DNA of 64,000 nucleotides from Hexactinellida sp. DTS-2022. Taxonomy: Eukaryota; Porifera; Hexactinellida. Positions within the stretch are counted from its first letter, which is position 1; the number at the start of each line of letters is the position of its first letter. Under the pieces are notes generated by a model. It was given only the letters and a program-made list of their open reading frames with translations. It did no database searches and was not told the DNA's origin. A program made the position numbers and the translations under genes. Location of the stretch: the NCBI GenBank assembly GCA_028753945.1, contig JAPNXP010000013.1, forward strand, positions 4,403,501-4,467,500, read 5' to 3'. This document shows, piece after piece, positions 5,083 through 62,520 of this stretch.

Positions 5083-29656
<24,574 letters not shown>

Positions 29657-39469: not shown

Positions 39470-40070
39470 ACTTTCACTGGATAATTGGTCCGGGGGCCAA
39501 AATTCCATGGAAAACTGGTCCTAGGACCATATTTCCATGTAAAATTGGCCCCCCGGACCAAATGTTTCGGGTAAAATTGGTCCGGGGGACCAATATTCCA
39601 TGGAATTTTGGTTTTAGGACCTGTTTTTCCATGGAATTTTGGTCCCGAATCAATTTTTCGGGATCCAATGTTCCAGTGAAAGGCTTATTCATAATTTTTT
39701 TGGTCCCAATCTGGTGAAAAATCGCCTAGGCTACTTTTCTAGTAAATACGGTAACTAAATAAACACAAACCTCAGAGGCAGTGTATTATACAGCCATTTG
39801 TAAATACGCTCCTAATCCTGGTCTGATCCAATTTTCATACGCATAAATCACAAATTAATGTTACGGTTTAGGAGAAGATTTCAATTTATGGCGCTCCTAA
39901 ATAAAAATTTTCCCAAAATCATGCTCCAAAAGGAGCGTCTCGCGCTCCTGGATTATTCATTGCTCAGAGGGACCAATTTTCAACAGAAGGACCAAAATTC
40001 CATGAAAATTTTGGTCCCCCCGCACCAATTTTCCAAGGGGACCAAAATTTCCGTAACAGGACAATTAATA
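39470..40070. mobile_element. Palindrome array II (GGTCC / ATTCCATGGAAT), interrupted by repeat R
   Basis: Six or more units of 30-32 bp alternate two palindromes: GGTCCGGGGGACC-type and AAAATTCCATGGAATTTT-type. The array covers about 39480-39690 and resumes at about 39968-40062. Between them lies a full copy of repeat R (39779-39962). Open frames across it are by-products of the repeat. No transposase. Confidence 0.75.
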
Positions 40071-40084
40071 TTTATACGTATTAA

Positions 40085-40250
40085 AAAATTTAACAAAATT
40101 TAACTCTTAATTAAATCAGCATACTTGTTTACTCTATCTAACGTTGGAAGTTAGTCTATATCTCAAATAGAAATGCGGTTTCTTTACCAGTAGTAATCCA
40201 GACAAACAAACAAATAAACACACAAACACACAACAGTCGAGTTTTAATAG
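40085..40250. repeat. Repeat G, reverse-oriented copy
   Basis: GCATACTTGTTTACTC, ATGCGGTTTCTTTACC, TCCAGACAAACAAACAAA and CAACAGTCGAGTTTTAATA in reverse orientation to the 29.7- and 37.7-kb copies. Confidence 0.6.
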
Positions 40251-40507
40251 AATATATGTGGAGAGGAAACGAAATAGAAATAAAACCCGAGTATACATTA
40301 ATTCAGTCACAGTAATAAGATCTGTCATTTACAACAAACTGGTGGTGTTCACAAAACTGGTCGTAAATGACAGGTGGCCGAAGGTGACAGGGGTCGTACA
40401 ATACAGGTACCAGTGCATATCAAAATGTAGAGTACGTACAGTCCATATTCCGAACCAAAGTTATCCAAACATTTTAAACTGAACAAAACATCTAGTGCTT
40501 TATAATA

Positions 40508-40571
40508 TTACTTCTATGATACTTATTAGTTACACTTCCTGGAAGTGTAACTAATAAGTATCATAGAAGTA
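40508..40571. repeat. Perfect 64-bp palindrome
   Basis: TACTTCTATGATACTTATTA and its exact complement meet at ACTTCCTGGAAGT with no loop. It would extrude as a cruciform or read as a long hairpin RNA. No flanking duplication identified. Confidence 0.85.
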
Positions 40572-40730
40572 ACTATGGAATCCATAGTTACATGTCTACT
40601 TAATTGAATAGACAGCTGTGAATGATATTCAACACCAGCAAATAAATTATAATTAGTTTGTGGGGAAATGGTCCACCATACTCAGTTATAAATTATACTA
40701 CAGCTATTTCAAAAATTTAATCAAGAAATA

Positions 40731-41093
40731 ATGCTGAAATATTTTTGCGTCAAACTTTGGTTATACTCTTTGGCTATGCAAATGGTTCAGAATTACACTT
40801 CAATGAAGAATAGAGGTCGCAACGGGCCAATATCATCGGCCCGACTCATAGAGGCACAAGTTAAGCATAATAAAAACTTGCCTGCAATCAAATTTGATAT
40901 TGAAATATTGATTGAGTGAACAAATTACCAGTTTATCTTGACCAAATGCCGATCGGTGACGCCAGGTAAAGTGGCTGAATTAGCACAAAAGGCAGGTTCA
41001 TTAGATAGTATTTATAAATTTGAATTATACTACGTATATAAATTAAAGGCGAAAAAGCTCGGAAAGTATTATCAATCTATGCTGTCAGTCAGA
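40731..41093 (+). pseudogene. Unknown protein-like frame with one in-frame TGA
   Basis: One frame from ATG 40731 runs about 120 codons to a TAG, broken only by a TGA at 40917-40919. The predicted sequence is basic (KNRGRNGPISSARLIEAQ; KVAELAQKAGSLDSIYKF). I do not recognise it. It may be a decayed gene or an exon pair with an intron I cannot see. Nothing around it suggests a function. Confidence 0.3.
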
Positions 41094-41892
41094 TAGTCAT
41101 AGACCCGAGGGCCGGGCTTTCGGCCTCTACTGAAGAGAATAGAGACCAAACATTGTGTTTGAGAGGGTTTGTAAAGAATATAGAGATTTAGGGTTAGAAA
41201 ATTAATAGATTTATCAACGAATCGCTATAAAATTCGAGGATTTGAAAAGTCAGTATGTCCTACCAGGGACTTCTTTAATATAGGGACTGTAAACTTCGTT
41301 TTACGGTCAAATTAGCGTAGGCCTGTGTATGACGGTTAAATTACCATGACAGTTTACTTACCTCTAGTACTATAACAATGATTAACCATGGATAAATTAT
41401 ATCCATGACGGTTTACTTACCGTCTTTGCAATGGCTTCACACTTTATACTTCCAATTACACATCCAGCACTTATAAGGATTCACATCTCAAATTCTAATT
41501 TACTTTTCATAATTTGACATTGCATCAACATAGCATTTAATAATTTCCATATTTAGCATTAGATATTTTGGGCCATAATGACATTTTCCAATTAGGGCCT
41601 AAAACAGTAAATTGTTACTTATTGATATCCCGTAATCCGCTAATGCTAGACACAGGAAATGTATTATTGTCGTATAGGAAATCATATTTTGGGAGTCCAA
41701 CGGTCATATTGGTTTATCGAAAATATTTGTGGAAAGTAAGTTATGCGATGTTCACACCTTTCCATATATGGTAATATTGTTAAAATCTCGAGATTGTTAG
41801 CTTTATACATATGAAATTTATTATTGGCGAATGGGAAATGGGAATTCATATTTAGGGACTCAGTAGATCACATTGATTTAAAGATAAAGCAA

Positions 41893-42200
41893 CTCCACTG
41901 TAACTGATTGGATGTGTGAATTCACTCTCGACCCATTAATTTACAGTCTCAGTTAAGCTATTGCAATGCACACTCAACAATTGATTGACACTAAATTCTT
42001 CTATACTAATTGAATGATAGCTGCTAATCCATACTGAGACAACCCTCTAATTTAATTGGTCAAGTTTTGTCACCTTTCTGGAGGGAAGATGTGAATATTT
42101 TTATTATATAATAGAACATGTTTCTAGATGCAGTATTCCCTACATTTCTGCCAAAATTTCAAGTCTGTATCTCTTACCAGTTCCTCAATCAATTCTGAAA
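41893..42200. repeat. Dispersed 300-bp repeat, copy 1
   Basis: Aligns end to end with 43003-43310: both carry AACTGATTGGATG, TTACAGTCTCAG, TAATTGAATG, GAAGATGTGAATATTTTT and AATTTCAAGTCTGTA. The two copies are clearly diverged, with many substitutions and small indels. Class unknown. Confidence 0.75.
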
Positions 42201-42237
42201 AAACTAACATCTAAAATCTTTATGAATTAATAGAGAA

Positions 42238-42602
42238 TACTTATCCACCGATCATCGGCAATTGTATTAAAAACCTCGCTACTTTCTACCGATGATGTTT
42301 TTTATAAACATAAAAAACAATCGGTAGAAAGTAGCGAGGTTTTTTAATACAAACGCCGATGATCGGTGGATAAGTATTCCCTTATAATATTTATATGACA
42401 ACAATAATAATTATAACCATATACGTATATTAATTCGGGAATACTTATCCACCGATCATCGGCGTTTGTATTAAAAAACCTCGCTACTTTCTACCGATTG
42501 TTTTTTTATGTTTATAAAAAACATCATCGGTAGAAAGTAGCGAGGTTTTTTAATACAAACGCCGATGATCGGTGCTACCGATGATCGGTGGATAAGTATT
42601 CT
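42238..42602. mobile_element. Two tandem fold-back hairpins with 60-bp arms
   Basis: Units 42238-42376 and 42437-42602 each run from AATACTTATCCACCGATC to GATCGGTGGATAAGTATT. The arms contain TACAAACGCCGATGATCGG and AACCTCGCTACTTTCTACCG. The loops TTTTTTATAAACATAAAAAA are in opposite orientation in the two units. The second has a small duplication of its right end. A shortened relative is at 19100-19190. Confidence 0.85.
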
Positions 42603-43002
42603 CTTAGATAATTAGGTTAATTAGAATGATTAGACTCTACATCTGGTGGATTACCATAATTCCCATAACACAAATGTCGCTAATTTGTTACAAGAAGTTT
42701 ATTGTTTCTCAAAAAATATTCTTTAGGTTCAAAGGATTTCGCTCGGTTAGTGTACGTATGTGTTATTGGAAGTTGAAACTATGTTAATCCACAGCAGTAG
42801 AGTCTATTGTATTGTGCAACCACATACACAATTGCGGTATTACGATAACAAGTTAACAACCAATGAGGTAGATTGGCATTCCTTCATTACCTAAGTAAAG
42901 ATAGAGTCTGTGAAGTTAAATAGTATTTCAAACCAAACTAATAACATGGCACAATAAAATTATTAGAAATGTATGGGATAATGGGTAGACAGACGAAACA
43001 CA

Positions 43003-43310
43003 AATAACTGATTGGATGAATGAACTTCCTCTCGACCAATTAAATTACAGTCTCAGATGGGCATTCTATAATGCACACTTAACAATTGATAGAGACACTA
43101 AAATCCTTTTATATTAATTGAATGCTAGTTACTAACCCATACTGGAAAACCCTCGAATTTAATAGGCTAAACTTTTGGCACCTTTAGGGAGGGGGAAGAT
43201 GTGAATATTTTTCTTAGATATCAGAACTTGTTCCCAGATACACTATTTCCCACCCTCCTGCCAAATTTCAAGTCTGTAGCTCTTACCAGTCCTCAATAAT
43301 TCTGAACAAA
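43003..43310. repeat. Dispersed 300-bp repeat, copy 2
   Basis: Partner of 41893-42200, same orientation. The interval between them holds the fold-back hairpins. Confidence 0.75.
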
Positions 43311-44337
43311 CAAAAGAAAATATTTGTGATTTAATATATAAAATATAATTACATGTGTATATTTTGTTTCAGAAGATAGTTAGTCATTAAAAACAATCTG
43401 TGCAAAGGTTACTTTATAACTGATAGCATATATAACATTAGCTCAGTATTTAGTGATTTCAAAACACATAAATGGAGAGCCCGTTTATTAGCACCCTTGG
43501 GTATTCTTTGTCTAATCCCGAAATTCAGGGATTGGAAAATATGTCCGGGATTGTAAGCCCTACTTGGAAGTCGGAACGGTTAACTAATTATTAGCCCACC
43601 TTTCGGAGAAGAAAGGAAATTTGGAATAATAGTTTCAGCTTAGTTGTTAGGAGTGTTGTGCCGTTAATATATTTAAGTCGACCAATATTATTGTCAGAAG
43701 TATACAGTACAAGTTAGAGAGTAAATATAATGTGGGATTTACAGGTTTTTATTAGGAATTTCTTATACATATATCGGCAAACACCTTTCTAGTAAGTTTC
43801 TACTATATAAAAACTGGGTCGCAAAAGGTCAATTTTTGATGTTCCAAAAAATCAACTCATCAGTGCTTAAAATTGCAAAAGACATTGTGTTGGATGATAT
43901 AAGTAATTGTCTGTATGAAAAGAACCGAAAAAGAATATAAACTGTGTTATTAAGTTTTCCCAAAAAATGATAATGAAAATAGCTTTAATTGATGAAAAAG
44001 GTAAACAACATTGGGAACAATAATGAGTAAACAAATGAGTAAACAGGAATAAATGAGTTAAAAGAATAAATGTGTAAAAAAGACTAAATGAGTAAAGAAT
44101 AAATGAGCAAACTAAAAGAAACGAAAGACATGAGAAAAGAGGAAAAACTTATAATTATTAATTATACAAACTATCACTTAGGAAGCTAACTTATTACCAT
44201 GGGACAGAATGGGGGTATTGGAACTAAATTAAATGGAGGTTTCACCTAGAGGATGATTAGTGAAGGTCAGGTCTTTCTCTCCAGATTTTTTGGTGTCAGC
44301 AGCATCCGTGAAACCTCTCTGCTTGATCCTATCCATT

Positions 44338-44800
44338 TCAGCTAGGGAGAGTGGTAGACTTCAAATGTTCAATTTGTCTCCTAAAGTACAAAAAGACAAA
44401 TACTAGGAAGACAAACAGGAAGATGATGGTTACAAAGAATAGAAAACACACAAATAGGAGAACATAGAATGCAGTTGTTTTGGTGTTTGCATTCAGTTCA
44501 CCTAGCACCTGTCCCTGCATTGAGATCGATATCACAATGACTGAAGTTCGATGGAGACACTTTAAATCCTTCAATGCACGAACAAGCATATGAGCCAATT
44601 GCGTTGTTACAGTGGTGCGAACAGTTTCCGTTGGACAGAAAGCATTCATTGATGTCGACACAGTCAGATAATCCCTACAGTTGGTATCCGGTTAGACACG
44701 AACATTCATATGAGCCGATTGCGTTGTTACAGTGGTGCGAACAGTTTCCGTTGGACAGAAGGCATTCATTGATGTCGCTACAAAGAGTGTCATTCTCATT
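44338..44800 (-). pseudogene. EGF-domain membrane protein remnant (two duplicated EGF modules)
   Basis: Two calcium-binding EGF-like modules ([24 protein letters not shown]) are encoded at about 44705-44790 and 44582-44667, with nearly identical DNA. A TAG interrupts the frame after GYQL between them. Downstream in another frame is a strongly hydrophobic segment (FLFFVTIIFLFVFLVFVFLYF) followed by RRQ, as in a type I membrane protein. The two frames do not join without a splice I cannot place. A possible acceptor (TTTGTAG) precedes the first module. Either a small multi-exon gene or a decayed copy. Confidence 0.5.
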
Positions 44801-45109
44801 ATAGACCCTGTTTTGTAGTTTAGCTAATTCTTACCTCTCAGATATCTGTAATTATGTTGTTTATTTAAAAATCTTGATAAGTTTCTTTCAAATCTATTCC
44901 TTTTTATTCTGTCTGACTAATCCTAATGATTATGATAAATAAATTCAGATAATAAATAATCCCATACATAATCCCATATTCTGCATAATTCTGAAACATT
45001 TCCTGTGTTTAGCATTAGCGGAGTACCCCCCTCAGACGGAGACCCAACTACGATTAAAGAAGTCCCTGGTCCTACATAAGTAGTATAAATTTATCAATAA
45101 AATAATATA

Positions 45110-45277
45110 CAGTAGAACCTCGTGAATACGAACACCAACGGCGCGGTAACAAATTTGTTCGTATTAACCGGAGTAATACCAATTGAATAGCCATTGTAGG
45201 GACCTGATTTGTGGAACTGTTTGTTCGTCTTATCCGGAAATTCGTATAATCGTGTACGTACTAACGAGGTTTTACTG
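45110..45277. mobile_element. MITE, TIR family A
   Basis: CAGTAGAACCTCGTGAATACG to ACTAACGAGGTTTTACTG, TA-flanked, interior AACAAATTTGTTCGTATTAA. It lies 65 bp from the stop of the RSPH1 gene. Confidence 0.8.
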
Positions 45278-45342
45278 TATGTGATATAATAAGTGATCGA
45301 GTCAGATAATATAATTAGTTCAGGCTATAAGTGTAGGTTGCA

Positions 45343-46002
45343 TCAGTTGCTCACAACCCTGCCCCCGACCCACTTCGGCACCGACACAGGCACGTAGTCC
45401 TCTGCGTCTTCGTTCTCCGGGGGCGGCTGCTCCTCCAGGACGTACTGGCCTTCCTGTCTGCTGGAATTCTGTCCGAAGGAGTACACAGCGGAACCCTGCG
45501 GTTGGTCCTGAAGGAATGTAGCCTGCAGGACGGTGCCATTGGCGTGCACCAGTCGCCCCTCCCCTTCCCTCCTGCCGTTAGCCCAAGCGCCCTCGTATCT
45601 GCTCTTGGTATCGTGCCAGGTGTACACGCCCTGGCCGTGGCGCTTGTCGTCAAACCACTCCCCTTCATACACGTCCGCATTCGTGTACGTGTAGGCACCG
45701 GAGCCGTGTCGCTTGTTCTCTACCCAGGAGCCCTCGTATCTAGACCCGTCTGGGTATACGAACGTGCCCTGTCCGTGCTTCTTGTTCTCCACGTACTCAC
45801 CGTCGTAGCGGGACCCATTCTTGAAACGGTACTTGCCCTGTCCGTTGCGCTTGCCGAACTGGTATCTGCCTTCATACGAGTCTTTGTTAGAAAAAGTCGC
45901 TTTTCCATGTCCGTGGCGCTCGTCCTTCTCATTTCTCTCCCCTTCGTAGCTGCCCAGGTCGGGCTCCTGGTCCTCAATCGCGTCAGATTCGTCTTCAGAC
46001 AT
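45343..46002 (-). CDS. RSPH1: Radial spoke head protein 1 homologue (MORN repeats)
   Basis: A component of the radial spoke head of motile cilia and flagella. The 219 codons form one exon from ATG 46000-46002. An acidic start (MSEDESDAIEDQEPDLGSYEGERN) is followed by at least six MORN repeats of the YEGxWxxxKRHGxGxYxY type (GKRNGQGKYRFKNGSRYDGEY, KKHGQGTFVYPDGSRYEG), then VPVSVPKWVGG, corresponding to VTVVPKW in human RSPH1. The long acidic C-terminal tail of the human protein (309 residues) is missing, so the protein ends just after the core. Other MORN proteins are the alternative; the N-terminal match favours RSPH1. Confidence 0.87.
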   Translation of the reverse strand: MSEDESDAIEDQEPDLGSYEGERNEKDERHGHGKATFSNKDSYEGRYQFGKRNGQGKYRFKNGSRYDGEYVENKKHGQGTFVYPDGSRYEGSWVENKRHGSGAYTYTNADVYEGEWFDDKRHGQGVYTWHDTKSRYEGAWANGRREGEGRLVHANGTVLQATFLQDQPQGSAVYSFGQNSSRQEGQYVLEEQPPPENEDAEDYVPVSVPKWVGGRVVSN

Positions 46003-46513
46003 TGTGCAAGAAATAAACTTAGAATTCGAAAGAAAAGCTAAAATATAATTTATTTGAAGTCTTAAATAATTTGCAGTCTACTCTCTTATTATTAATGACT
46101 CATAATTAGAAATAATTATCAATTGAAAATATATAGGGTGTATTCTTCTAAGATGTTCTTTCTATAATTAAGCAATTAAAATGAATAGGTCGTTACTGGA
46201 CCAGAACACAAATTTCGATATACGTATCTATACTATTAAAACATGGGTGGGTGGGTGTATATGTGTGTGTATATATTTGTTTGTATGCTACGAGTTGATT
46301 GAAGAAACTGGACGGTTTCCAAATGTGATTTTTGGCATATAGGGGTAACTTTTGGCACCCGCCAACAAGTTGAGGTTTCCACTCAAAATTTCTCACACCT
46401 CGAAAAGTTATGACGTCATTGTCACATTTCGAGAACCTCGAAAATTCACTTAATCAATAATACAAAAGGTGTTATATTATTACCTAAATATACAAACAAA
46501 GGGATCAAATAAA
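46003..46513. other. Intergenic, no gene seen
   Basis: Includes a TATCTATACTATTAAAACATGG unit followed by GTGGGTGGGTGTATATGTG, the start of a repeat resembling the (GTTT)n family. No supported gene. Confidence 0.5.
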
Positions 46514-46516
46514 TTA

Positions 46517-46636
<120 letters not shown>

Positions 46637-46663
46637 TTACCGATCAAATTCCTTCTTGATATA

Positions 46664-47953
46664 CCCGGTGTAAGAGGAGATCCTGTTCCCCCGTGAAAAT
46701 TGTTCCCCGAACTATTTTTCCTAGGAAATATTGTTCCCCTCTAGGGAATTTTGTTCCCCTCTGCCTAATGCAAAATATTGTTCCCCTGAACAGTATTCAC
46801 TAGGGAACACTGTTTCCCCTTTTAGTACAGTAGTAATATTAATTAACATCCGCACAGTATGTTATATTGATATGACACAATCGAAAGTGAATTCGAGAAA
46901 ATCCAATTATTATTCTGCATTTATCCATAACACAATGGAGAAATTCGACCATATTCCATATGTTGAAAAGTAGACAACACATGTGTACTTTTCAATACAG
47001 TGCAACCTCTATAAGTGGGGTCTCTATAAATGGGGAACCTCCATAAGTGGGGAATTTTTTTACCATATTCGTATATATCCATACAAATGAACCTCTATAA
47101 GCGGGGAAGTGGGGAATGGGGGACCATAAATTTCAAGGAGTTTTTATCTGCATACAAAACAACCTCCATAAATGGGGGGAATGGACAAATCCTAACATGA
47201 TTCTTATAAAATAATACAATATTTCCAATAAATCGACTCTAAAGTTCTACAGAAAAATATTTTCGATTGATCTACTCTGATGTTTTTAGAAGAAATCACC
47301 TAGTGTAGATCAGCAGTTAACTAAATTGTCATAATATACAAATAATAACTATAACGTGCATTAATGTGTGTGTTATATGAATACTTTGTATAATATAGCA
47401 TATATAATGTTTTTCCAATTGAATTTTATAACCGGGGAATGGGGGGCAATTGAAATTTTCCCCGTCCCATGCTCCCCACTTATAGAGGTTCCACTGTACC
47501 TCCATATTCGTCTATATCTTCCGTGAGGAAAGTATACAGCAGGGTGTTCAAAGAGCGAGAAGTATGTAATAATAGGTAATTCACAACTTTTCTACATATT
47601 CTAGTAACCTTAGTTCTATATATTGTATTGAGGGGAAGATAATTTTCTAGTGAATCTGCACTGTTCGGGGGAACAATATTTACTAGTGAATACTGTTCGG
47701 GGAACAATATTTACTAGTGAATACTGTTTGGGGGAACAATATTTACTAGCGAATATTGTTCGGGGGAACATATTTACTAGTGAATATTGTTCGGGGGAAC
47801 AAAATTAACCAGGGGGAAACACTCGGGGGGTACATTATTCCCTAGGAAATATGGTGTGGGGAACAGGATTTCCTAGGAAATATTGTTCGGGGGAACAGTA
47901 TTTCCTAGGAAATCCTGTTTGGGGGAACAAAAAGATGGGGGAACAGGATTTAC
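46664..47953. mobile_element. Palindrome array I (GTTCGGGGGAAC / TATTTACTAGTGAATA) inserted in DYNLL
   Basis: The left part (about 46680-46830) and right part (about 47640-47950) are arrays of about 31-bp units alternating GTTCGGGGGAAC with ATATTTACTAGTGAATAT-type palindromes. The outer ends are an imperfect inverted repeat (CCGGTGTAAGAGGAGATCCTG; complement of right end CCGGTGTCATAGTAAATCCTG). The middle is non-coding and contains a 499-bp MITE. No transposase. Confidence 0.75.
46998..47496. mobile_element. MITE, TIR family D, nested in array I
   Basis: CAGTGCAACCTCTATAAGTGG at the left and CCACTTATAGAGGTTCCACTG at the right, with TA on both sides. Internal repeats of CTCCATAAGTGGGG form a subterminal pattern like that of Tigger elements. 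499 bp, non-coding. Confidence 0.85.
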
Positions 47954-48112
47954 TATGACACCGGCAATATCTTTTTCCACTTGGAATCTTTCCAAAGCAT
48001 TTATTGCTAATTCGGTTGCAACCTGTTGCATTTCATCAGACATGTCATTACTCTTGATGACTACCTTCTTTTCTGCCATTTTATGCTAATTTATAAATTG
48101 TAGTAATAGAGT

Positions 48113-48245
48113 CACCTCGGGAACAGGTTACTTTGACCCGATTAAACGGAGAAATCTATTAACCGAAAATATTTTGCCAAACTGTCTATCCGTCCTAGAA
48201 ATCCTGTGAAATTTTGGCCCGATTAAGCGGATTTGTTCGAGTGTG
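48113..48245. mobile_element. Family C MITE truncating the LRR frame
   Basis: CGAT/CCGATTAAACGG..., TTAACCGAAAATATTTTGCC and GGCCCGATTAAGCGGA match family C in reverse. It supplies the stop of the LRR frame and lies only 34 bp from the DYNLL start codon. Confidence 0.65.
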
Positions 48246-48890
48246 GTCATAGAAGAATCGCTAAAATTGAAATATGTGAGACTTCGAAGTGTCTCTTTGG
48301 AAACTAAATCTAAATTTGTTTTCAAGTACCGAGTAGATAATTCTGTCAATCCATCCAATCCAGATAGTGCGTTCTCTTCAAATGTGAAATTAGTGAAGAA
48401 TCTGTAAAAAACCAATATTCTCAAACGTGTCAAGTTAGCAAACTGGTGACTATAGAGGTGTTGTATTCCAGTCAGAAATAAATACTGAATACGAGTATTA
48501 TCGAAACTGCTGGGAATAACATTATACCACAGTGCGTCTTCTGATTGATATAATCCTAACTCATGCAAGTTAGGTAGAATAAGCGTTGACGGAAGAATGG
48601 TTACGACATTAATAGGTAGATAAAGGTAGTGGAGATACAGTCGTGTTAAACTTCTCAGGTTTAAATATGGAAAGCGATCGAATACAACATTCTGTATATC
48701 GAGGTATGTAAGGCTTGGGAAATAGTTTAAGAAATCATAAGGACAATATATAACAGCCGCATTGTATGAATATAAATATAGAGATTGGATGTAAATTTGA
48801 TTCTCGTTGAATTCAATCGAGATTGTATCATAAAATACAAATAGAATATGGTCATACCTCCAGCTATATCCAGTGTTGCCATAAAGTTAA
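48128..48890 (-). pseudogene. Leucine-rich-repeat protein fragment, cut by repeats at both ends
   Basis: One frame of about 250 codons runs from about 48890 down to 48128 with leucine-rich-repeat-like spacing (SLTYLDIQNVVFDRFPYLN, LRSLTRLYLHYLYLP, LPNLHELGLYQSEDALW, NLTRLRILVFYRFF, LRSLTYFNF). The last 40 codons (IRLIGPKFHRI onward) are family C MITE sequence, so the original C-terminus is lost. The upstream side runs into the 48.9-kb repeat. No signal peptide or membrane anchor remains visible. Probably a degraded receptor-type gene. Confidence 0.5.
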
Positions 48891-49105
48891 TAGTTCATGA
48901 ATAATTCGTTATATTCGGATGAGACATACGTTTATTTGTTTATATACGAAGAAAATTAGATAGTAGAACAAATTTCCATCGTATATTTTGGAATGTTGCA
49001 TACAATTTTGTTTTTTGCGATATTTCATGCAAATAGTTGCACCTTGTATGTTACAATGTTGCATGTAACAAAGTTGCATCGTGTATGATGGGATTTATGT
49101 ATATG
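48880..49105. repeat. TTGCAT-rich repeat, copy 1
   Basis: Shares ATACGAAGAAAATTAGATAG, AATGTTGCATACAA, CGATATTTCATGCAAAT, TTACAATGTTGCATG and GTTGCATCGTGTATGATGG with 50505-50800. The unit is rich in the self-complementary core TTGCATGCAA-like words. Confidence 0.75.
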
Positions 49106-49252: not shown

Positions 49253-49439
49253 GATTACACCAGACGCCCCATGTTTTGCACATGCCACAACATACGGTAG
49301 ACAGGGAGTATCATCAGTCCTAGCCAAGATTATACATCCAAAGGGGTATATTCTGTGCTAGCCCACTTCATACCCGGGGGTATAATCTGGGCTGTTACAC
49401 TGGTTATGTTTTATTAGAATAGACTAGTATATTTTATAA

Positions 49440-52914: not shown

Positions 52915-52917
52915 GTT

Positions 52918-53045
52918 TGTATACTTATTCTTTAGTTTATCTGTCTTCAATCTCTTTTTTCAAGTTGTTTATTATTTATTAATCAATTAAATATCAATTC
53001 CTGACTATCTTGTTATCGGCCTAGGGCTAGATGGTACAATTTATT
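52918..53045. other. Short AT-rich gap after the SLC2 gene
   Basis: Contains the presumed 3' UTR and the left target duplication AATTTATT (53038-53045) of the hAT-like element that follows. Confidence 0.5.
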
Positions 53046-53706: not shown

Positions 53707-53884
53707 AATTTATTACAGAACTGCGAATTTGATTCCTAACATTTTGTTCTTAACAATTGTTATTATGCTGGCGTGGGTCTGAAGTATAAATAGAAAAACC
53801 CCAGTTTCACTTTCATTTCAATTGAAATTCAATAACTTTCAGTTTCAGTTTTCACATTCCGAGCCAGCTTTGGAATTTATTATA

Positions 53885-53985
53885 TACGAGCCCTTCACTC
53901 TTGGTAGCTTTGCGACAGATTGGTGCTACGCACCTAAAGTTAACAGCGCTACGCGGCCTTACTCCTCACTAAACAAATGATTACA
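53885..53985. repeat. GC-rich CCCTTCACTCTTGGTAGC repeat fragment
   Basis: GAGCCCTTC, GGTAGCTTTGCGAC, GGTGCTACGCACC and GCGGCCTTACTCCTCACT repeat the modules of the 38.1-kb fold-back element in one orientation only, so this is a half-element. Confidence 0.7.
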
Positions 53986-54009
53986 TAGTTAGTAATATTT
54001 GTCATAGTT

Positions 54010-54405
54010 ATATATATTATGTCGATTTTGTCAAATGTTGATTTACAAAATCAACATGAATCAACGGAACTAAACAAGTGTTCTACTTTGGCTATATTAT
54101 TCGGATAAGCCTAAGTTTTATTGCATTTTGTTCAGAATTCGCATCATCCAAGTATATACCGACTTGTATGAAGAATTTTTTTACCAAAATGAATATTTTT
54201 ACTAGAATGAAAAAATATTCCAGGATGATTTTGCAAAATCAACGAATAAAAAATGTCGATTTTATAAAATCAACATATTTTATTAGTTGATTTTGTAAAA
54301 TCGACATTTCTAATTAGATGATTTTGTAAAATCGACACTCTGAAATGTACATTTACAAAATCAACTAATTAAAAATGTTGATTTTATAAAATCGACATAA
54401 CATAT
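54010..54405. mobile_element. Palindrome array III (GTCGATTTTACAAAATC), copy 1
   Basis: Ends TTATGTCGATTTTGTCAAAT and its complement near 54400 (AAATCGACATAACATATA). A unique core (CGGAACTAAACAAGTGTTC...TATTCCAGG) is followed by about four 30-bp palindromic units. Copy 2 at 61728-62520 is in the same orientation with many more units. Confidence 0.8.
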
Positions 54406-54417
54406 ACGTAATATAAT

Positions 54418-54845
54418 ACCTGTTACTTATAATACCAGTTGAAAGCTAACTTCTGGGTTGATTTTGATCTTTCATTAATTTGTTTACCTATTTTTGTAAA
54501 CAACAACAACAAATATTCATATTATTATTATTTTATAAACGCGAAATTCGTGTTCAGCATACTTGTTTACCTATAATATCCGTTGAAAGCTAACTTCTAG
54601 GTTGATTTTGAATTTCATTAATTTGTTTACCTATTTTGTGTAAACAACAACAACAAATATTCATATTATTATTATTTTATAAACGCGAAATTCGTGTTCA
54701 GCATACTTGTTTACCTATAATATCCGTTGAAAGCTAACTTCTAGGTTGATTTTGAATTTCATTAATTTGTTTACCTATTTGTGTACAACAACACCAATAA
54801 ATATTCATATTACAAATTTATAAACGTGAAATTCGGGTTCAGCAT
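54418..54845. repeat. Tandem repeat, about 143-bp period, three copies
   Basis: Unit starts ACTTGTTTACCTATAATATC at 54561 and 54704, with a diverged first copy at 54418 and a partial fourth at 54846. Each unit has GTTGAAAGCTAACTTCTAGG, GTAAACAACAACAACAAATA and AACGCGAAATTCGTGTTCAG. It leads into reverse repeat G (to about 55050) with CA/AAAC microsatellites. Confidence 0.8.
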
Positions 54846-55050
54846 ACTTGTTTACCTATTATAACATTTGTTTACCCATTATAACATTTGGAAGTTAGTT
54901 TATATATCATATATTAATGCGGTTTCTTTTCCCCCATCACTTTAATACAATCCGGACAAACACACACACTCACACACACACAAACAAACAAACAACAATC
55001 GAGATTTAATATTATTTCTGGACAAACAAATAAACAGACAACAATTTCGC

Positions 55051-55767
55051 TTTTAATATATAGATAGATAATAAGGTATAGTCAAATTAAACATTCGGGA
55101 AGTGCAATCAGAAGAAGCACACTCCCATCCCGTCTGTGAGGGGTTTTAATTTGCAATAGAGAAACAATTTACATCACTAAATAATATTTATGGGATTATA
55201 TTATTATTTGTTATTAGGTCAATCTTGCTAGTAGAAAAATTTGTTAATAGGGAAACTCATTTCTACACAATAATGCTTCGTCCCTGAACAACTAGCGAAT
55301 AAGTATAACAATCTTTCCATTAGAGCAGTTGCTACAAGTATTTGACAAATCACAGTCTATCTATAATTTATATTTACGTATTACTGAACATCTCCATAGA
55401 ATAATTACAAAGCACATGTTTCTCAACAACTAAACAATATTGTACTTCACAAGATATACGTATACTCCCTTTCCGAGTAAAGGGAGAGCCAAGTAAATGA
55501 AGATTTTACTGTTACTGAATTAGAAAATTACATATTGTTCTCATAAAAATTTATTTGAATACTAATTCCATATGAATTTGACTAAGGATAGGTTAGTTAA
55601 CCCCAATATTCATTAAGTTTGTCCCTAAACCCCAAAGTATAAATAAGAGTTTTGAGAAATCAATTAACTAAAATACAATCACATAAAGGAATTCACGTTG
55701 ATCTAGTTATCCAATATATCTGGTACAGTTTCATACGAGCAACTGAGATCCATCATCAGAAATCACA
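55051..55767. other. Upstream region of the SLC18B1-like gene, no gene seen
   Basis: About 700 bp of AT-rich sequence without recognisable repeats, presumably including the promoter. No element could be assigned. Confidence 0.5.
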
Positions 55768-57165
55768 ATGGTGTTTGATGAAAGTAAATCCCCACCACGT
55801 TTTCCCAAACTTCGGAAAATATTTTCATGCACAAAAGTACAATTCGCCAAGGTTGCATTTACCGTTACGTGTTTATTTCTCCTGACATTGGTATACATGG
55901 GTGTCATGTTACATTACGTGTGTTACCCATTCATTGCAAAATCTAAAGGATTAAATCCCACAAATGTTGGAATCATTATGGGTCTTTTTCCATTTGTCAA
56001 CATTTTTACATTTCCAATTTCCGGTGTACTTATCAGTAGAATGAACATTAAAGTAACATTTGCAACAAGTGCAATCGTGCAATGTCTCCTATTTTCGCTC
56101 TTTGGATTGGTGCCTAGCATGTCGCCGTTACCTTTTCAAATATGTTCTTATCTCTTTCCAATCATTTTCTCATTTCCAGTAGCTTTCTTCTACAATTCCA
56201 TATATTCATTACTTCAATTAGTATTCCCAAAACATGCAACGCTTATCCTCACTGTACAGTATGTGTTCTTTTCCTCTGCGTATCTGATGGGACCGCCTGT
56301 TGGTAGCATACTCTACTATTCAATTGGTTTCCTTCCTATGTTTTTACTATTCTCCGTAGCTGGGACACTCGTAACAATTGCAGCTATACTAATGCTGTAC
56401 TATTCACCCATGAATACTGAATTAAATACTAGACAGAAGGAAAACCCCAGTTCCTTGTTGATTTTCAAAATCCTTTTAACGCCCTCGATTTCGTTCAACC
56501 TCTTGTTCACCTTCATCACCTCGTCAGTCTATTTCTACTTTCTACCTGTGATGGGTCCTTACATAGCCTCTCGGTACAATGTTGGAGTCGTAACTATCGG
56601 AGCAGTGATGATGGTATCAGAATTGAGCCATTTGATCGTAGCGCTTCCCTTGGGGTACTTAATGAATAAGTGGTCATCTCCTTTGTATTATCTCTTTATT
56701 GGATTTGGGTTAGCCATTCATTCAATCGGAATTTTTTTGTATATTCCTTCTTCTATTCTCTTCCCTACTACTGAATATTACCTCCCCCTATGTTTCGTAG
56801 CAAACCTAATTATAGGAATTGGATTCGCTTTGTCGTATGTACCGACTATGTCAGTGACATTGAAGAGAGGAGAGGAAAAATTCCAATCTTTTCCTACAAG
56901 TACTAGCACGATAATAAGTGGACTTATTACAGGGGTTTACTCTCTGGGAGAATCAGCTGGACCTGTTTCTGCTGGGATAATTGCAGAATTCTTGGTACTT
57001 GATGTTGTGACCTTCTACCTTTCAATAATTGTGAGCATTGCCGCAATTATCGCGTTTATTGCTATGTTGGTAAGTGGTGAATTGAAACAAATTTTCATTT
57101 CTCTCAAGAACTTATGTTGCCGAAAATCAGAAGACATAATTCTGCCGAATTATAATTATGTCTAA
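55768..57165 (+). CDS. Major facilitator transporter, SLC18B1-like
   Basis: A 465-residue, 12-helix carrier in one exon from ATG 55768. A short basic N-terminus is followed by helix 1 (FLLTLVYMGVMLHYVCYPF), then PTNVGIIMGLFPFVNIF and SGVLISRMNIKV, in the position of the motif A loop. The second half has PLGYLMNKW and SLGESAGPVSAGIIAEFL in helix 11, typical of SLC18 vesicular amine and polyamine carriers. Human SLC18B1 has 456 residues. Substrate is not deducible. The N-terminal half resembles SLC18B1 more than SLC18A. Could belong to a lineage-specific branch. Confidence 0.75.
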   Translation: MVFDESKSPPRFPKLRKIFSCTKVQFAKVAFTVTCLFLLTLVYMGVMLHYVCYPFIAKSKGLNPTNVGIIMGLFPFVNIFTFPISGVLISRMNIKVTFATSAIVQCLLFSLFGLVPSMSPLPFQICSYLFPIIFSFPVAFFYNSIYSLLQLVFPKHATLILTVQYVFFSSAYLMGPPVGSILYYSIGFLPMFLLFSVAGTLVTIAAILMLYYSPMNTELNTRQKENPSSLLIFKILLTPSISFNLLFTFITSSVYFYFLPVMGPYIASRYNVGVVTIGAVMMVSELSHLIVALPLGYLMNKWSSPLYYLFIGFGLAIHSIGIFLYIPSSILFPTTEYYLPLCFVANLIIGIGFALSYVPTMSVTLKRGEEKFQSFPTSTSTIISGLITGVYSLGESAGPVSAGIIAEFLVLDVVTFYLSIIVSIAAIIAFIAMLVSGELKQIFISLKNLCCRKSEDIILPNYNYV

Positions 57166-57247
57166 TATTAATATTCTGAATTTATTAATTGTCTTGCTCT
57201 TGTTTTGTTAGTTATGTGACAAATTTTATAAAAAAATAGTTCTAAAT

Positions 57248-57432
57248 CAGTGTATTATACAGCCATTTATAAATACGCTCCTAATCCTGGCCTGTGCAAT
57301 TTCATACGCCTAAATCACAAATTAATGTTACGGTATAGGAGAAGATTCCAAATTTTTGCGCTCCTAATTCAAATTTTCCAATAAATCATACTCCAAAAGG
57401 AGTGTCTCGCCCTCCTGTATAAATTCCTGTTC
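57248..57432 (+). repeat. Interspersed repeat R, copy 5 (complete)
   Basis: Runs CAGTGTATTATACAGCC, AATACGCTCCTAATCCTGG, CATACGCCTAAATCACAAAT, GGTATAGGAGAAGATTCC, CCAAAAGGAGTGTCTCGCC. Useful as a consensus copy. Confidence 0.8.
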
Positions 57433-57898
57433 TAAATGTTTGGCGGTAGATCAGGGGATAAAGTAATTCACTAATAAACTTTTTAAAACTCTGTATTCCT
57501 GAAATATGAGAAAGATTATAAGATATACAAATACAATTAGGTATGAATTAACTAAACACCTTGAACGATAAATTTTGTTCGATTCTTCGGAATTTTTTCA
57601 GAATTATTAAGTTTTCTTAATTTATATTTATAGGGAATTCCTCATTTGTTGTCAGATTTCACAGATATTTTGGTGGTACGAATCTAACCCCTATTGCAAA
57701 TGCACATATGGGGCCGTTCAACGAAACGTAAACCTTCCAAGGGGGAAGGGGGGATGTCAACCAATGTGTGACAACTGACAGACCATCCTTTTGTATTATA
57801 AAAATGGTAAAAAAATCGTGACATAGGTAGGGGGTATCTATTTTCCCTTGAATTTAGCGTTTCAGTCCCATATATGTAATCTTTTAACTTTCTAACTA

Positions 57899-58082
57899 CA
57901 GGTAAACCTCCCAAAGCGGCGCCATTCGGGAGAATGATTTTGTGCCGCTTCTCGGAGGTTGCCGCTTTGGGAGGTTGCTCGTAAGGTAAAACTCCCAAAG
58001 CGGCACCCATCGGGAGAATGATTTTGTGCCGCTTCTCGGAGGTTGCCGCTACTCGGAGGTGCCGCTTTGGGAGGTTTACCTG
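57899..58082. mobile_element. Hairpin MITE, TIR family E (AACCTCCCAAAGCGGC)
   Basis: CAGGTAAACCTCCCAAAGCGG to CCGCTTTGGGAGGTTTACCTG, with TA at 57897-57898 and 58083-58084. The interior is two near-identical blocks with CGGGAGAATGATTTTGTGCC and GCTTCTCGGAGGTTGCCGCT. Confidence 0.88.
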
Positions 58083-58084
58083 TA

Positions 58085-60006
58085 TTTGTCCTAAAATTTA
58101 TATGCATTTGAGCGTAGAAAATGTTAAAAACTATTAGTGAATAAGCCCCAGAAAAATAAAACCTCCTCAACTTTGGAGTTGGCACCATTTTACAAAAGGA
58201 GCACGCCAGTTCTCATTCTTTATAAATGGAGCTCCCTTCAATTGCAATCAAATTTACACTCTGGAATAATACCATATGTATTTTCCTAATATATGATCAA
58301 GGACCGTGATTGTAACGTAACTTGTATAAGATATAAGATTCACTGATAACGGCAGAAAGAGGGGAAATTCATATTCTATTTTCATAGCGCTATTAGAATG
58401 GCGTCTTAAAATAAATTTAATCTATAATTTTCTCTTCTTCTTCCATTCAACTCTTATCAGTGATCAATTGATATAGCATAAGTATAGATATACCGCCAAT
58501 ACATGAGCCTGGGTACTGGAGTTACAGGGCATTATGTTTTCTATTAAAGTGAGCGTAAGATTTAAGTGGAAATTGAAGTCTATAATTGGTAATCTTGTGT
58601 CAGACCTATTTGGGAGGATTTCGGGTGATTTACTCTTTTGCAAAGCTAAATATTAAGAGCATCAATTTATTAGGTTGTAATACCCACATGGATGACAGCT
58701 ACATAAATTCTAGACAATTTCACTCTTTATCTATAATAACAACGATAAGTACAAGCCAATTAGTTATTAACAGTCATCATATGAATGAAACTAAATTTCT
58801 AGTTATATTATGATCGAAAATATCGAAGAAACGATTGGGATCAAAACAACAGAAGGGGGGAAAGTAACATTACTTAATTTGGCACTATAATAAAAAGGGG
58901 TCTTAAGAGCATCAGTTATCTAAGTCACAATCGGAGTGGACCATGAGTCAACATTTGTGACCCATGACCCATCGAGGGACCCACTACACAATTTCAAATA
59001 TCTAAATATAATGTCACAGTAACAAGACAGTAACAGAATAACAGAATATCAGAATAAAACTAATCAATACATTTGTTTTGGTACCCTTTTGATACCACAG
59101 AAATTTCCTGTACAGTTTCTGGGTCAACTGATTTCTCATTTCTCATAGACATTAAAATTCTAAACGGGTCATGGATCATGGAGCCGTGAGCCATCAACCC
59201 ATGGCAAATGCAAGATAACAATGTCATTAAGTGGTATCACATGAGGGAGTGAATATTAAACTTAACGTTTAGGCTGATAGCTAAAATATTTTGTAATTCA
59301 AGGTTTCTCTTCATTGTGATTTTGTTGTTTACGAGCATCTATAGATTAATGCTATAGTAACAGAAACATTATTGTTGTCAGTGGCGTATCCAGGGGGGGG
59401 GGGGGATTTGGGTGTTCAAACACCCCCCTCATAACTGGTTTCCAAAAGGGATATGTTGTTATTTATAGTTTGGTACAACTGCACAATATTACACTCCTCC
59501 TTCTATGTGACAAGAATAGCTGTACATCGATGTTGAGGGTCTAAGATCCCATTAAAATTCCTATTGTTCAAATACCGTATTTGCCCGAATAAGCGCCGAG
59601 CCAATAAAAATGACATTGGTATGATAAAATTTAAGCACATTAGTTGATAACTGTAGTGTAATTCCATTGATTTTGGCAACTTCGGTATGTATACTGTCGG
59701 TGAGACTGAGAACCATTAGACCCGACCTAAATATTATTGAATTATTATAAGTTTCTTCATTGATTTGTGCCCTGACACATAATCTATACTTTGTGGATAT
59801 TCCAATAATTCAATTTACAAATAAACTCGAGTTGTTAATGGTAAACGTTGGAATTCAAAGAATTTGCAAAGGGACAATTGTCTGGTTTGAATGATTTATT
59901 AATGTATTTATTTCGCAAAAGTTCAGAATTAAATTAACATTTTAGAATTATGCAAGTAAGTATGGCTATTTTAGCGTTACAAAAATATTGATGCGTTATT
60001 ACTTAG
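58085..60006. other. Intergenic, no gene seen
   Basis: Nearly 2 kb without a recognisable gene. At about 59386 a lone hAT-type end (CAGTGGCGTATCCAGG) is followed by 13 G and GGTGTTCAAACACCC. The GGGGCCGTTCAACGAAACG sequence lies just to the left at about 57711. Confidence 0.55.
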
Positions 60007-60602
60007 ATGGAGAAGCGATCGGTCATAAAAAAACTTCGAGACAGGACAAGTGGTTGCTCTAAAGACCCGACAAGAATAATTGGCGCCAAAATACTCAAGA
60101 GATGGGAGAGCCTTGCAGTAGATACAACCTGTGAAATGGATAGACTAAACCAAGCTACTTTTAACTGTATTGACACTGAATGTGTATATGGGCGTTATTT
60201 TATAAGCGGATTTAATATGGGTTGATTACTATACACGATCTGACTGAAGTGTTGTATAGGAAAGGTGTTGGAATGAAAACAGCACAATTACTAGCAAACT
60301 CGATTGAGTCGAGTGAATCACTCGCTCATAACAAAGCAGTGACTGATGTTCATTGGTACCCTCACGACACAGGAATGTTCACTTCTTCAGGTATTCTTAC
60401 CGTCATCATTAAATGGCGCCTAAACAGCTTAACCACAAATCTGAGATTCTCAAAAGTGTCTCCATTGGACTCGAAATGGTTTATTACCCCATATACAACC
60501 CAAATAATAACAATAGGAGGCATAGTTTATCCTAGAGTGAAAATTAGAAACTGTCCTCTTTGTTTTATGGCCTTCTCGGCGACATATATAGCTGTATATT
60601 AA
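60007..60602 (+). pseudogene. ERCC8: ERCC8/CSA-like WD40 remnant with a frameshift
   Basis: ERCC8 is the WD40 substrate receptor of the CSA-CRL4 ligase in transcription-coupled repair. Two adjacent frames match its N-terminal third: EGRYMLSG-like VYGRYFISG, then IHDLTE, and the diagnostic VHWYPHDTGMFTSSG (human VQWYPHDTGMFTSS), then IIKWRLNSL and KVSPLDSKW. The frame shifts by one base near 60215, and matching stops after about one third of the protein. A second-repeat-sized deletion or insertion after TSSG is also likely. No further WD40 repeats follow. Reads as a truncated, frameshifted copy. Confidence 0.72.
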
Positions 60603-60609
60603 GTAGGCC

Positions 60610-61635
60610 ATGCTCGGTGTCATAATGTCATTAATTCTATTCTGCTTAGCTGGTAAAACATTCTTCCTAAACCTAACAAATCTAATCTATTTCAATTACG
60701 CAATCGCACTGCTTTTAGGATATGCGTGTTTTCTGTTTCTATTACCAACAGCCGTATTAAGCGAGTTACTACTGTGCGGGAGCTGTATTCGTAACACAGT
60801 ATGTATGGACTGCTGCATTTACATGGAGCTTAAGCTTATGCATTAGTGTCATGCTAATATACTTATTCAGAGTTGATAAGCTGATAAAAGTTCGAAATAT
60901 AAAACCATTCATTCGTTATTGTGCACTCAGTTGGAGTGTCGCTATTTTGCCCTGCACAATAACACTGTTCGTCACGACACCTAATTTTACAGATTATATG
61001 ATATCCACTATGAGTCTATGAGAGATAATTTAACCTGTTATCTGTCAAATGAGAGACACACAAAATGGGGACTTTTAGGGACAGTACTATTCCTACTTTC
61101 TCTCGAAATAATCGCTCTAATAATTACCTAAGTTTGTTGATATGTTGGCGTACGAATCACAACCTTAAAAATCGCTGTCAATTTAAGCAGACAGTTTAAA
61201 GAGAACGCGTTTAAGAATACAATTTCGCAATCTCTATATAGGATTCCTAACTATAACTTCAATACTGGGATTACCTTGGATGTTGTTAGTTGTGAATGCA
61301 GTATGTAGTTACTTAATTGGGGACGATACACTGTCTTCAATAATAGAGTGGTTGTTTCTGGTATTAAACGCACCGATCGGTGTAGTATTCTTCTTTGCAC
61401 ACACAATACATTCTAAAGAAGTGAAAGGACTATTTAAGCATAACATTTTTACCTCACAAAATACCGTAAGTTCCCCTACCATGATCCCTTCTCCATCTCG
61501 CCAATCTTTTCCGCTACCCGACTCTATTCCCAGGGCAAAAAGCCTTTGATATCATCAGTGAGTTCCACCCCGGCCTCTCCGATCCCTCAAGATGAAAAGG
61601 CCTTTGAAAATCCGGTATTCTCAATCTCTCAATAG
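60610..61635 (+). pseudogene. Adhesion/secretin-type GPCR remnant with several frame breaks
   Basis: Seven-helix segments of a class B-like receptor are spread over three frames. Helices 1-2 are at about 60620-60760 (LILFCLAGKTFF; IYFNYAIALLLGYACFLF). Helices 3-4 follow in another frame (FTWSLSLCISVMLIYLFRVDK; ALSWSVAILPCTITLF). Helix 5 follows DNLTCYLSNERHTKWG, then the third loop. Helix 6 is ILGLPWMLLVVNAVCSYL, and helix 7 is WLFLVLNAPIGVVFFFAH, with a Ser/Pro-rich tail ending EKAFENPVF. At least three shifts or stops prevent a single protein. No GPS or long ectodomain is attached; the ERCC8-like remnant directly abuts it. Confidence 0.72.
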
Positions 61636-61727
61636 AAAGTACATGTGACCAACGTTAAATTAACTATATACTAACTGTTAAGCTAAGTTCGTTATTATTA
61701 TACCCTTCCTAAGTATATGTATACGTA

Positions 61728-62520
61728 TATATATGTTATGTCGATTTTGTCAAATGTTGATTTTGCAAAATCAACATGTCGATTTTACAAAATCAACATG
61801 AATCAACGGAACTAAAACAAGTGTTCTACTTTGGCTATATTACTCGGATAGGCCCAGGTTTTATTTCATTTTGTTCAGAATTCGCTTCATCCAAGTATAT
61901 ACCGACTTGTATGAAGAATTTTTTTTACCAAAATGAAATTTTTTTACTAGAATGAAAAAATATTCCAGGGTGATTTTGCAAAATCAACGAATAAAATATG
62001 TCGATTTTATAAAATCAACATTTTTTATTAGTTGATTTTGTAAAATCGACATTTTTTATTTGTTGATTTTGTAAAATCGACATTTCTAATTAGTTGATTT
62101 TGTAAAATCGACATTCTGAAATGTCGATTTTACAAAATCAACATTTCAGAATGTCGATTTTACAAAATCAACTAATTAAAAATGTTGATTTTGTAAAATC
62201 AACATTCTGAAATGTCGATTTTACAAAATCAACATTTCAGAATGTCGATTTTACAAAATCAACTAATTAAAAATGTTGATTTTGTAAAATCAACATTCTG
62301 AAATGTCGATTTTACAAAATCAACATTCTGAAATGTCGATTTTACAAAATCAACTAATTAAAAATGTTGATTTTATAAAATCAACTAATTAAAAATGTAG
62401 ATTTTATAAAATCAACTATTTTACAAATTAAACTTAAGTTTGTATGTTGATTTTACAAAATCGACATTTTGGATGTTGATTTTGTAAAATCGACTATTTG
62501 ACAAAATCGACATAACATAT
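61728..62520. mobile_element. Palindrome array III (GTCGATTTTACAAAATC), copy 2, expanded
   Basis: Ends TATATGTTATGTCGATTTTG and AAAATCGACATAACATATA. The same unique core as copy 1 (GTGTTCTACTTTGGCTATAT, TATACCGACTTGTATGAAG) is followed by about 15 units of 30-31 bp, each with GTTGATTTTGTAAAATCGAC in either orientation and spacers TTCTGAA or TAATTAG. Non-coding. Confidence 0.85.

What the first reader, a model, noticed from the sequence alone, without database searches (positions are those of the whole stretch)
39470..62520. Three sequence-unrelated repeat families share one architecture: alternating palindromes with a ~30-31 bp period
Array I (46.7/47.6 kb, GTTCGGGGGAAC with TACTAGTGA), array II (39.5/40.0 kb, GGTCCGGGGGACC with TTCCATGGAA) and array III (54.0 and 61.7 kb, GTCGATTTTACAAAATC) have no common sequence. 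Each is built of about 30-31 bp units alternating two palindromes, and arrays I and III have inverted outer ends. Copy number of units differs between the two array III copies. The shared geometry without shared sequence suggests a common mechanism: a replication or recombination machinery, or proteins spaced at three helical turns, or one class of undescribed non-autonomous element.
Basis: partly seen in the sequence, partly recalled or inferred. Interest (0 to 1): 0.8.

Follow-up and report, generated by a model that had tools for sequence, protein, structure and literature searches.

The report
Ginger-like mini-transposons with repeated palindromic ends
The three repeat arrays are parts of short parasitic DNA elements whose end sequence seems to have been copied over and over as ~31-letter palindromes, and their ends and landing sites resemble those of known Ginger transposons, which explains most of their shared shape.

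Summary
The arrays are real and are parts of transposable elements. Array I (46669-47960), array II (39472-40058, split by another repeat) and array III (54015-54402, 61734-62517) have TGTNR-type ends with inverted partners and lie between 4-bp target duplications: I between CCGG (11 of 19 paired copies on both sides), II between GGAC here and GGTA elsewhere, III between TATA inside RTATAY (20 of 27). Empty sites without a gap at the junction support 4 bp for I, II and III, though one III insertion is ambiguous. Published Ginger1 elements have TGTNR ends with CCGG duplications, Ginger2 elements TGTNR ends with RTATAY targets. The arrays are best read as non-autonomous Ginger-like elements. Units of I and II are related (z 6.2), contrary to the finding; III and a further family IV are unrelated in sequence. 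The terminal repeats of I, II, III and the right end of IV are diverged copies of their own array unit, so the arrays look like iterated terminal repeats, probably extra transposase-binding sites. 'Two alternating palindromes' follows from a palindromic unit plus periodicity. The ~31 bp period is common but not universal (family VI: 49-50 bp). No autonomous partner was proven; family IV carries a PHD-finger remnant, a domain of one known Ginger1 transposase.

The parts
39472..40058 (+). Array II element, TGTCAC-type ends (here TTTCACTGG...CCGTAACA)
   Evidence: flanked on both sides by GGAC; other copies lack the stretch in the middle
39468..39471 (.). 4-bp target site duplication GGAC, left
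40059..40062 (.). 4-bp target site duplication GGAC, right
39478..39612 (.). Array II proper, about four 30-31 bp palindromic units
   Evidence: period 30, 4.4 copies; palindromy z 5.1-5.3
39779..39962 (.). Other high-copy repeat (about 185 bp) that splits array II
   Evidence: 28 listed rows cover about query 315-498; 2261 first-look candidates for the whole query; another copy at 57248-57420
46669..47960 (+). Array I element, Ginger1-like ends TGTAAGAG...CTATGACA
   Evidence: CCGG on both sides
46665..46668 (.). Target site duplication CCGG, left
47961..47964 (.). Target site duplication CCGG, right
46680..46820 (-). Left (inverted) part of array I
   Evidence: Sequence; inverted repeat with 47890-47971 (I3); matches the left end of other copies
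47660..47930 (+). Right part of array I, 8.5 units of 32 bp
46986..47496 (.). Foreign insertion inside the array I element (CAGTGCAACCTCTATAAG... inverted ends, pogo/Tigger-like by recall)
   Evidence: alignment to another copy breaks here; inverted ends read
54015..54402 (+). Array III element, short copy, Ginger2-like ends (first triplet TAT instead of TGT)
   Evidence: TATA on both sides in ATATAC
61734..62517 (+). Array III element, long copy, TGTTATGTCG...CGACATAACA
   Evidence: TATA on both sides in ATATAC
61972..62428 (.). Array III proper, 14.9 units of about 30-31 bp
   Evidence: dyad spacings mostly 30-31 bp

Best explanation
Arrays I, II and III are internal parts of non-autonomous DNA transposons of the Ginger class (integrase-type transposases; TGTNR...YNACA ends; 4-bp duplications). 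I is Ginger1-like, III is Ginger2-like, and II belongs with I by unit sequence but has other targets. In each, the terminal inverted repeat has been reiterated inward in both orientations, giving a dyad-symmetric unit of about 31 bp made of two half-units about 15.5 bp apart. Shown: ends, duplications, empty sites, TIR-unit similarity, variable unit number. Inferred: that the half-units are transposase-binding sites, that an autonomous Ginger supplies the enzyme, and that unit number changes by slippage or unequal exchange. The common shape then reflects common ancestry (I, II and related families V and VI) plus a shared type of enzyme (III and IV).
For: Array III: TATA on both sides in 21 of 28 pairs (one pair spans two insertions). 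Without that row 20 of 27, all 20 inside RTATAY, against 218 of 714 TATA sites in the window. One further locus, seen on two contigs, has TATG on both sides, which argues against a TA duplication. Paralogues without the insertion align with no gap at the junction for the C10 copy (two) and the C13:528361 copy (one). Array I: CCGG on both sides in 11 of 19 copies that the script paired; four copies have empty-site paralogues with no gap at the junction. Array II: GGAC/GGAC and GGTA/GGTA, the latter with a 90% identical empty site without a gap at the junction; a V variant has GGTG/GGTG. TIR versus own unit, matches of 21: I 16 and 17, II 16 and 14, III 16, IV right end 14 (p at most 0.0045 in 2000 mononucleotide shuffles). 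End patterns genome-wide, 0 hits of the reversed control: I 92 (this pattern includes CCGG), III 321, II 410 and 171. Published Ginger ends and targets. Family IV, not used as a seed, came up in the palindrome scan, and one complete copy lies between CCGG with TGT...ACA ends. In L069 it follows a PHD finger (PF00628, E 1.3e-8, protein 2), a domain of the Ginger1-9_HM transposase.
Against: No autonomous element with these ends was shown. Integrase (PF00665) hits within 4 kb of the 200 listed array II ends: 5 inside, 3 outside, 1.07 expected each, so not specific. The PHD in family IV could come from another source. The IV left end does not match its unit significantly (12 of 21, p 0.18), and the window's own II right end only weakly (13 of 21, p 0.023). 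8 of 19 array I copies lack identical 4-bp flanks, one (CAGG/CCTG) being inverted rather than direct. For the C12 insertion of array III most paralogues show gaps of 2-3 bases at the junction (the one at window 54762 a gap of 2, which alone would fit a TA duplication); two others, with TAGA in place of TATA, have none there. Array II targets (GGAC, GGTA) match neither published Ginger preference. III and IV units are unrelated in sequence to the others, so common descent of the arrays is not shown for them. The 31 bp period is not universal (family VI).
Confidence: 0.72

Rival explanations
1. The arrays are ordinary tandem-repeat growth inside mini-transposons: slippage or hairpin-driven duplication multiplied a palindromic end, with no selected binding function.
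For: Unit number varies freely (III elements 388-784 bp; end-to-end pairs from 96 bp among the first 100 places listed). Palindromic arrays of other periods exist (12-23 bp), and around the 22-, 12/23-, 17- and 19-bp arrays tested no TGT...ACA pair with identical flanks was found. Many units are degenerate.
Against: A palindromic unit of 30-33 bp that resembles the TIR occurs in families with unrelated sequences (III, IV, I/II). Of the arrays left after masking, 5 of 21 with period 28-35 are palindromic against 9 of 163 of other periods, but these five come from two families only (four from IV).
Confidence: 0.35
2. Array III is a Tc1/mariner-type mini-transposon with TA duplications, so it shares nothing mechanistic with I and II.
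For: Ends can be read as TA|TATGTT...AACATA|TA in most copies. One paralogue of the C12 target (window 54762) has a gap of 2 at the junction.
Against: One locus has TATG/TATG, and paralogues of the C10 and C13 targets align without a gap at the junction for a 4-bp duplication. 20 of 20 TATA/TATA copies lie in RTATAY.
Confidence: 0.1
3. The elements are solo LTRs of Gypsy-like retrotransposons, which also have TG...CA ends and short duplications.
For: TGT...ACA ends with 4-bp duplications.
Against: Long inverted ends (I3: 82 nt, 74% complementary) and fixed CCGG or RTATAY targets fit Ginger as published; that LTRs lack such long inverted ends is recalled.
Confidence: 0.05
4. Host function: the arrays bind a chromatin or replication protein at three-turn spacing.
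For: Period close to three helical turns (31/10.5; arithmetic only).
Against: Arrays lie in mobile elements with target duplications at dispersed sites; no call tested a host role.
Confidence: 0.05

Closest known systems
Ginger1 DNA transposons (PMC2836005; passages and sections 5-6 seen)
   Same: TGTNR termini; 4-bp duplications, mostly CCGG; terminal inverted repeats; PHD domain present in one family (Ginger1-9_HM)
   Different: No iterated palindromic units are described there ('palindrom' and 'tandem repeat' have 0 occurrences in its text); our copies are non-autonomous
Ginger2/TDD transposons (PMC2836005)
   Same: TGTNR termini; 4-bp duplication; RTATAY target, matching array III; a 252-bp family (Ginger2-1N1_NV) is listed in its Table 2
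   Different: Variable arrays of TIR-like palindromes inside array III elements
Foldback and Galileo elements of Drosophila
   Same: Terminal repeats with internal tandem repeats of variable number, proposed to hold secondary transposase-binding sites (PMC3573991, passages seen); recalled: Foldback has ~31-bp tandem repeats
   Different: Galileo is in the P superfamily (PMC4168063, start of abstract in the listing); recalled: 7-8 bp duplications, against 4 bp here; our units are palindromic
Helentron/DINE-type satellite-carrying elements
   Same: Tandem arrays inside a non-autonomous mobile element (PMC7492417 and PMC4067079, search listing only)
   Different: Rolling-circle elements (listing); ours have inverted ends and 4-bp duplications

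Membership tests
Ginger1 (array I) | TGTNR...YNACA termini | tested here: met
   TGTCAGAG / CTATGACA and TGTCATAG / CTCTGACA; in 16 of 19 paired copies the two ends read TGT(C/A)A and TGACA, in 3 one end has a change. The end patterns used for pairing contain TGTCA
Ginger1 (array I) | 4-bp CCGG (or CCGT/ACGG) duplication | tested here: met
   11 of 19 CCGG on both sides; 8 of 19 imperfect; four empty sites without a gap at the junction
Ginger1 (array I) | Terminal inverted repeats of about 40-270 bp | tested here: met
   82-nt arms, 74% complementary, in the window copy, about 71 nt of each inside the element (I3); loosely met, since the arms are imperfect
Ginger1 (array I) | Autonomous partner with Gypsy-like integrase plus OTU/Ulp1/PHD | tested here: inconclusive
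   One listed integrase hit lies inside a 10.5-kb array I pair that also holds frames that look gag-like by eye (zinc-knuckle cysteines; Pfam found nothing in the 239-aa frame), read as a nested Gypsy. PHD remnant in family IV. Ulp1 hits 2.2-2.3 kb inside two array II ends (2 inside, 0 outside, 0.21 expected each)
Ginger2 (array III) | TGTNR termini | tested here: met
   TGTTA...TAACA in most of the pairs; the short window copy begins TAT
Ginger2 (array III) | 4-bp duplication at RTATAY | tested here: met
   20 of 27 with TATA on both sides, all 20 in RTATAY; empty sites without a gap at the junction for two copies, ambiguous for the C12 copy
Ginger2 (array III) | Integrase transposase lacking GPY/F and YPYY | not tested
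Ginger (array II) | TGTNR termini and 4-bp duplication | tested here: met
   TGTCAC...GTGACA; GGAC/GGAC and GGTA/GGTA in the two copies read with both ends, empty site for one
Ginger (array II) | CCGG or RTATAY target preference | tested here: not met
   Duplications seen are GGAC and GGTA; so II is called Ginger-like, not a Ginger1 or Ginger2 member
Tc1/mariner (array III) | TA duplication | tested here: not met
   TATG/TATG locus and 4-bp empty sites of the C10 and C13 copies; the C12 copy is ambiguous
Foldback/Galileo (P superfamily) | 7-8 bp duplication (recalled) | tested here: not met
   4 bp in the three arrays

The most novel reading that the evidence does not exclude
A dyad unit of about 31 bp with half-sites about 15.5 bp apart is a functional requirement of Ginger integrases in this lineage: several unrelated Ginger families independently evolved iterated, palindromic terminal-repeat arrays that load extra integrase and raise transposition, so unit number tunes element activity.
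Probability: 0.22. Interest if true: 0.62.

Novelty: new variant of a known kind. Interest (0 to 1): 0.45.

Why it matters
Ginger transposons are DNA-transposon relatives of Gypsy integrases. Families of one genome that turned their ends into variable arrays of dyad sites would give a natural dose series for testing how integrase-like enzymes use multiple binding sites, and would explain a source of dispersed palindromic satellites.

Tried and rejected
Tc1/mariner reading of array III with TA duplications: held at first, dropped. A THAP-domain ORF (PF05485, E 7.3e-9) in a 4.6-kb element with array I ends (C15:2049062-2053650): considered as an autonomous partner, left open, since the middle could not be read; THAP has 0 occurrences in PMC2836005. 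Integrase near array II ends as proof of autonomy: rejected as non-specific (5 inside, 3 outside). Ulp1 near array II ends (2 inside, 0 outside): kept as suggestive only, because in the C11 case a family IV element lies between. First pairing script for array I mistook inner units for ends; redone. A search for TGT...ACA pairs around 14 palindromic arrays picked by hand found identical 4-bp flanks for 2 of 14, of which only family IV is convincing; the control gave 4 of 400 random places with such flanks and 161 of 400 with a pair of any kind. The IV right-end string carried letters at its inner end that I had not read; one search repeats the test with the true sequence (14 of 21, p 0.0045, in place of 15 of 21), and the report uses that.

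Sampling limits: 30 loci were fetched for III (247 first-look candidates), 30 and 30 for the two ends of I (86 and 94), none for II (2261 candidates, many of them the inserted repeat), so II rests on copies that happened to lie near array I. One search pairs only ends within 2.6 kb and up to 4 mismatches. Lists show only the first 100 places each; searches scored 150 of 706 and 150 of 440 candidates. The OTU search was made to look for Ginger1 transposases and was not compared further. The scan uses stretches around seeds, not random genome.
Full report
What was checked. The window is part of a 112.4-Mb assembly in 18 contigs, of an animal that I could not name. Shuffled windows gave no tandem array of period 26-36 in 20 trials. 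Units are self-complementary well above shuffled units. Because a periodic sequence with one dyad must have a second dyad half a period on, 'two alternating palindromes' says only that the unit is palindromic; this is geometry, not a second shared feature.

The arrays are inside transposable elements. Comparing 30 array III loci and the window gave sharp boundaries TGTTATGTCG...CGACATAACA. Of 27 elements under 1 kb, 20 have TATA on both sides and all 20 of these lie in RTATAY, whereas 218 of 714 TATA sites in the window do. Seven of 27 lack this: two rows, one locus seen on two contigs, have TATG (CATA on the other strand) on both sides, and five have mismatched flanks. Two paralogues of the C10 target and one of the C13:528361 target, without insertion, align with no gap at the junction when one TATA is removed. 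The C12 insertion is ambiguous: most paralogues of its target show gaps of 2-3 bases at the junction, two with TAGA have none there. For array I, 19 complete copies were paired; 11 have CCGG on both sides and 8 do not. Four copies have paralogous empty sites without a gap at the junction, one of them an array I element inside an array II element (C2), whose own flanks are CCGG and CCAG. For array II the window copy has GGAC on both sides and the C2 copy GGTA, the latter with a 90% identical empty site without a gap at the junction. The C4 copy of a related variant (V) has GGTG.

Relations between the families. Units of I and II are related (score 18.0 against a shuffle mean of 7.8, z 6.2), as are II-V (6.3), II-VI (5.4) and V-VI (7.8), and more weakly I-V (3.6); I-VI is marginal (2.5); III and IV match none. 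The sequence next to TGT is a diverged copy of the family's own unit: 16 and 17 of 21 positions for I, 16 and 14 for II, 16 for III, 14 for the right end of IV (p at most 0.0045); the left end of IV, 12 of 21, is not significant. For I the other unit variant, with ACTAGT, gives 14 and 17. Array II's right end also matches the unit of I (15 of 21). So the arrays read as reiterated terminal repeats. Family VI has a 49-50 bp unit, so the ~31 bp period is frequent, not fixed. Outside the masked families, 14 of 184 tandem arrays in 244 kb have a palindromic unit at z 3 or more: 5 of 21 with period 28-35 and 9 of 163 with other periods. Those five belong to two families, four arrays to IV and one to V, and lie in stretches fetched around seeds, so they are not independent draws.

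What they are. The paper that defined Ginger transposons (PMC2836005; passages and sections 5 and 6 read) gives TGTNR ends for both groups, CCGG (75%) or CCGT/ACGG (24%) duplications for Ginger1, and 4-bp duplications with RTATAY targets for Ginger2. Array I meets the first and array III the second. Array II has the ends and the 4-bp duplication but neither target, so I call it Ginger-like only. Family IV, found by the palindrome scan and not by a seed, has one 142-bp copy TGTAAGGG...CGTTTACA between CCGG. Longer family IV copies, several of about 1 kb by the positions of their inverted ends, share a stretch that in L069 encodes a PHD finger (protein 2) and in three other loci (L034, L051, L074) is degraded. 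Ginger1-9_HM has Ulp1 and PHD.

Autonomous partner. Not shown. Integrase hits near the 200 listed array II ends are not clearly more frequent inside than outside (5 and 3; 1.07 expected each). Two of 30 Ulp1 hits lie 2.2-2.3 kb inside array II ends (C11:14135551 with the end at C11:14137829; C17:3344088 with the end at C17:3346252) and none outside, 0.21 expected each; in the C11 case a family IV element lies between, so this is suggestive at most. One array I pair of 4.6 kb holds a THAP domain, unexplained.

Mechanism. Inferred: integrase-type transposases bind the terminal repeat; inward copies of it in both orientations give more binding sites. Tandem repeats in terminal or subterminal regions have been proposed to hold secondary binding sites in Galileo and other elements, described as a convergent trait (PMC3573991, passages). 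Half-units about 15.5 bp apart put neighbouring dyads on opposite faces of the helix and repeats of one dyad on the same face; this is arithmetic, not a test.

Novelty. The Ginger paper's text has no occurrence of 'palindrom' or 'tandem repeat', and searches, seen as listings only, showed no title or abstract start describing iterated palindromic ends in Ginger elements. The library holds open-licence papers only and no repeat database was available, so individual families may already be named there. Verdict: new variant of a known kind, of moderate interest.

Noticed in passing
39779-39962 and 57248-57420 (also 17523-17688, 26788-26910, 643-750): A very abundant repeat of about 185 bp that has inserted into array II; the query holding it had 2261 first-look candidates genome-wide.
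   Followed up: partly
42226-42600: Nested inverted repeats, 70 nt at 100% complementarity, with further long arms.
   Followed up: no
40508-40572: Perfect 32-nt inverted repeat with a 1-nt loop.
   Followed up: no
46994-47500, 45112-45290, 57900-58090: Elements with ACCTC-type inverted ends that resemble pogo/Tigger mini-transposons (by recall); ARAGORN calls a doubtful tRNA-Arg at 45112-45206 that Rfam does not list.
   Followed up: no
54416-54863: 144-bp tandem repeat (3.1 copies) related to a widespread repeat in which array III elements have inserted.
   Followed up: partly
L049 and L089 (C15:2049062-2053650): 4.6-kb element with array I ends that carries a THAP-domain reading frame.
   Followed up: partly
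L050 1714-2083: Tandem array that is open in several frames (DSFESMAR repeats) inside a long array I element.
   Followed up: no
L051 582-1574, minus strand: 331-aa open frame of RTRGELHI repeats running into a degraded PHD finger next to a family IV array.
   Followed up: no
L026 and L027: The same array III insertion with matching flanks on C12 and C17 in opposite orientation: a duplicated segment or assembly duplicate.
   Followed up: no
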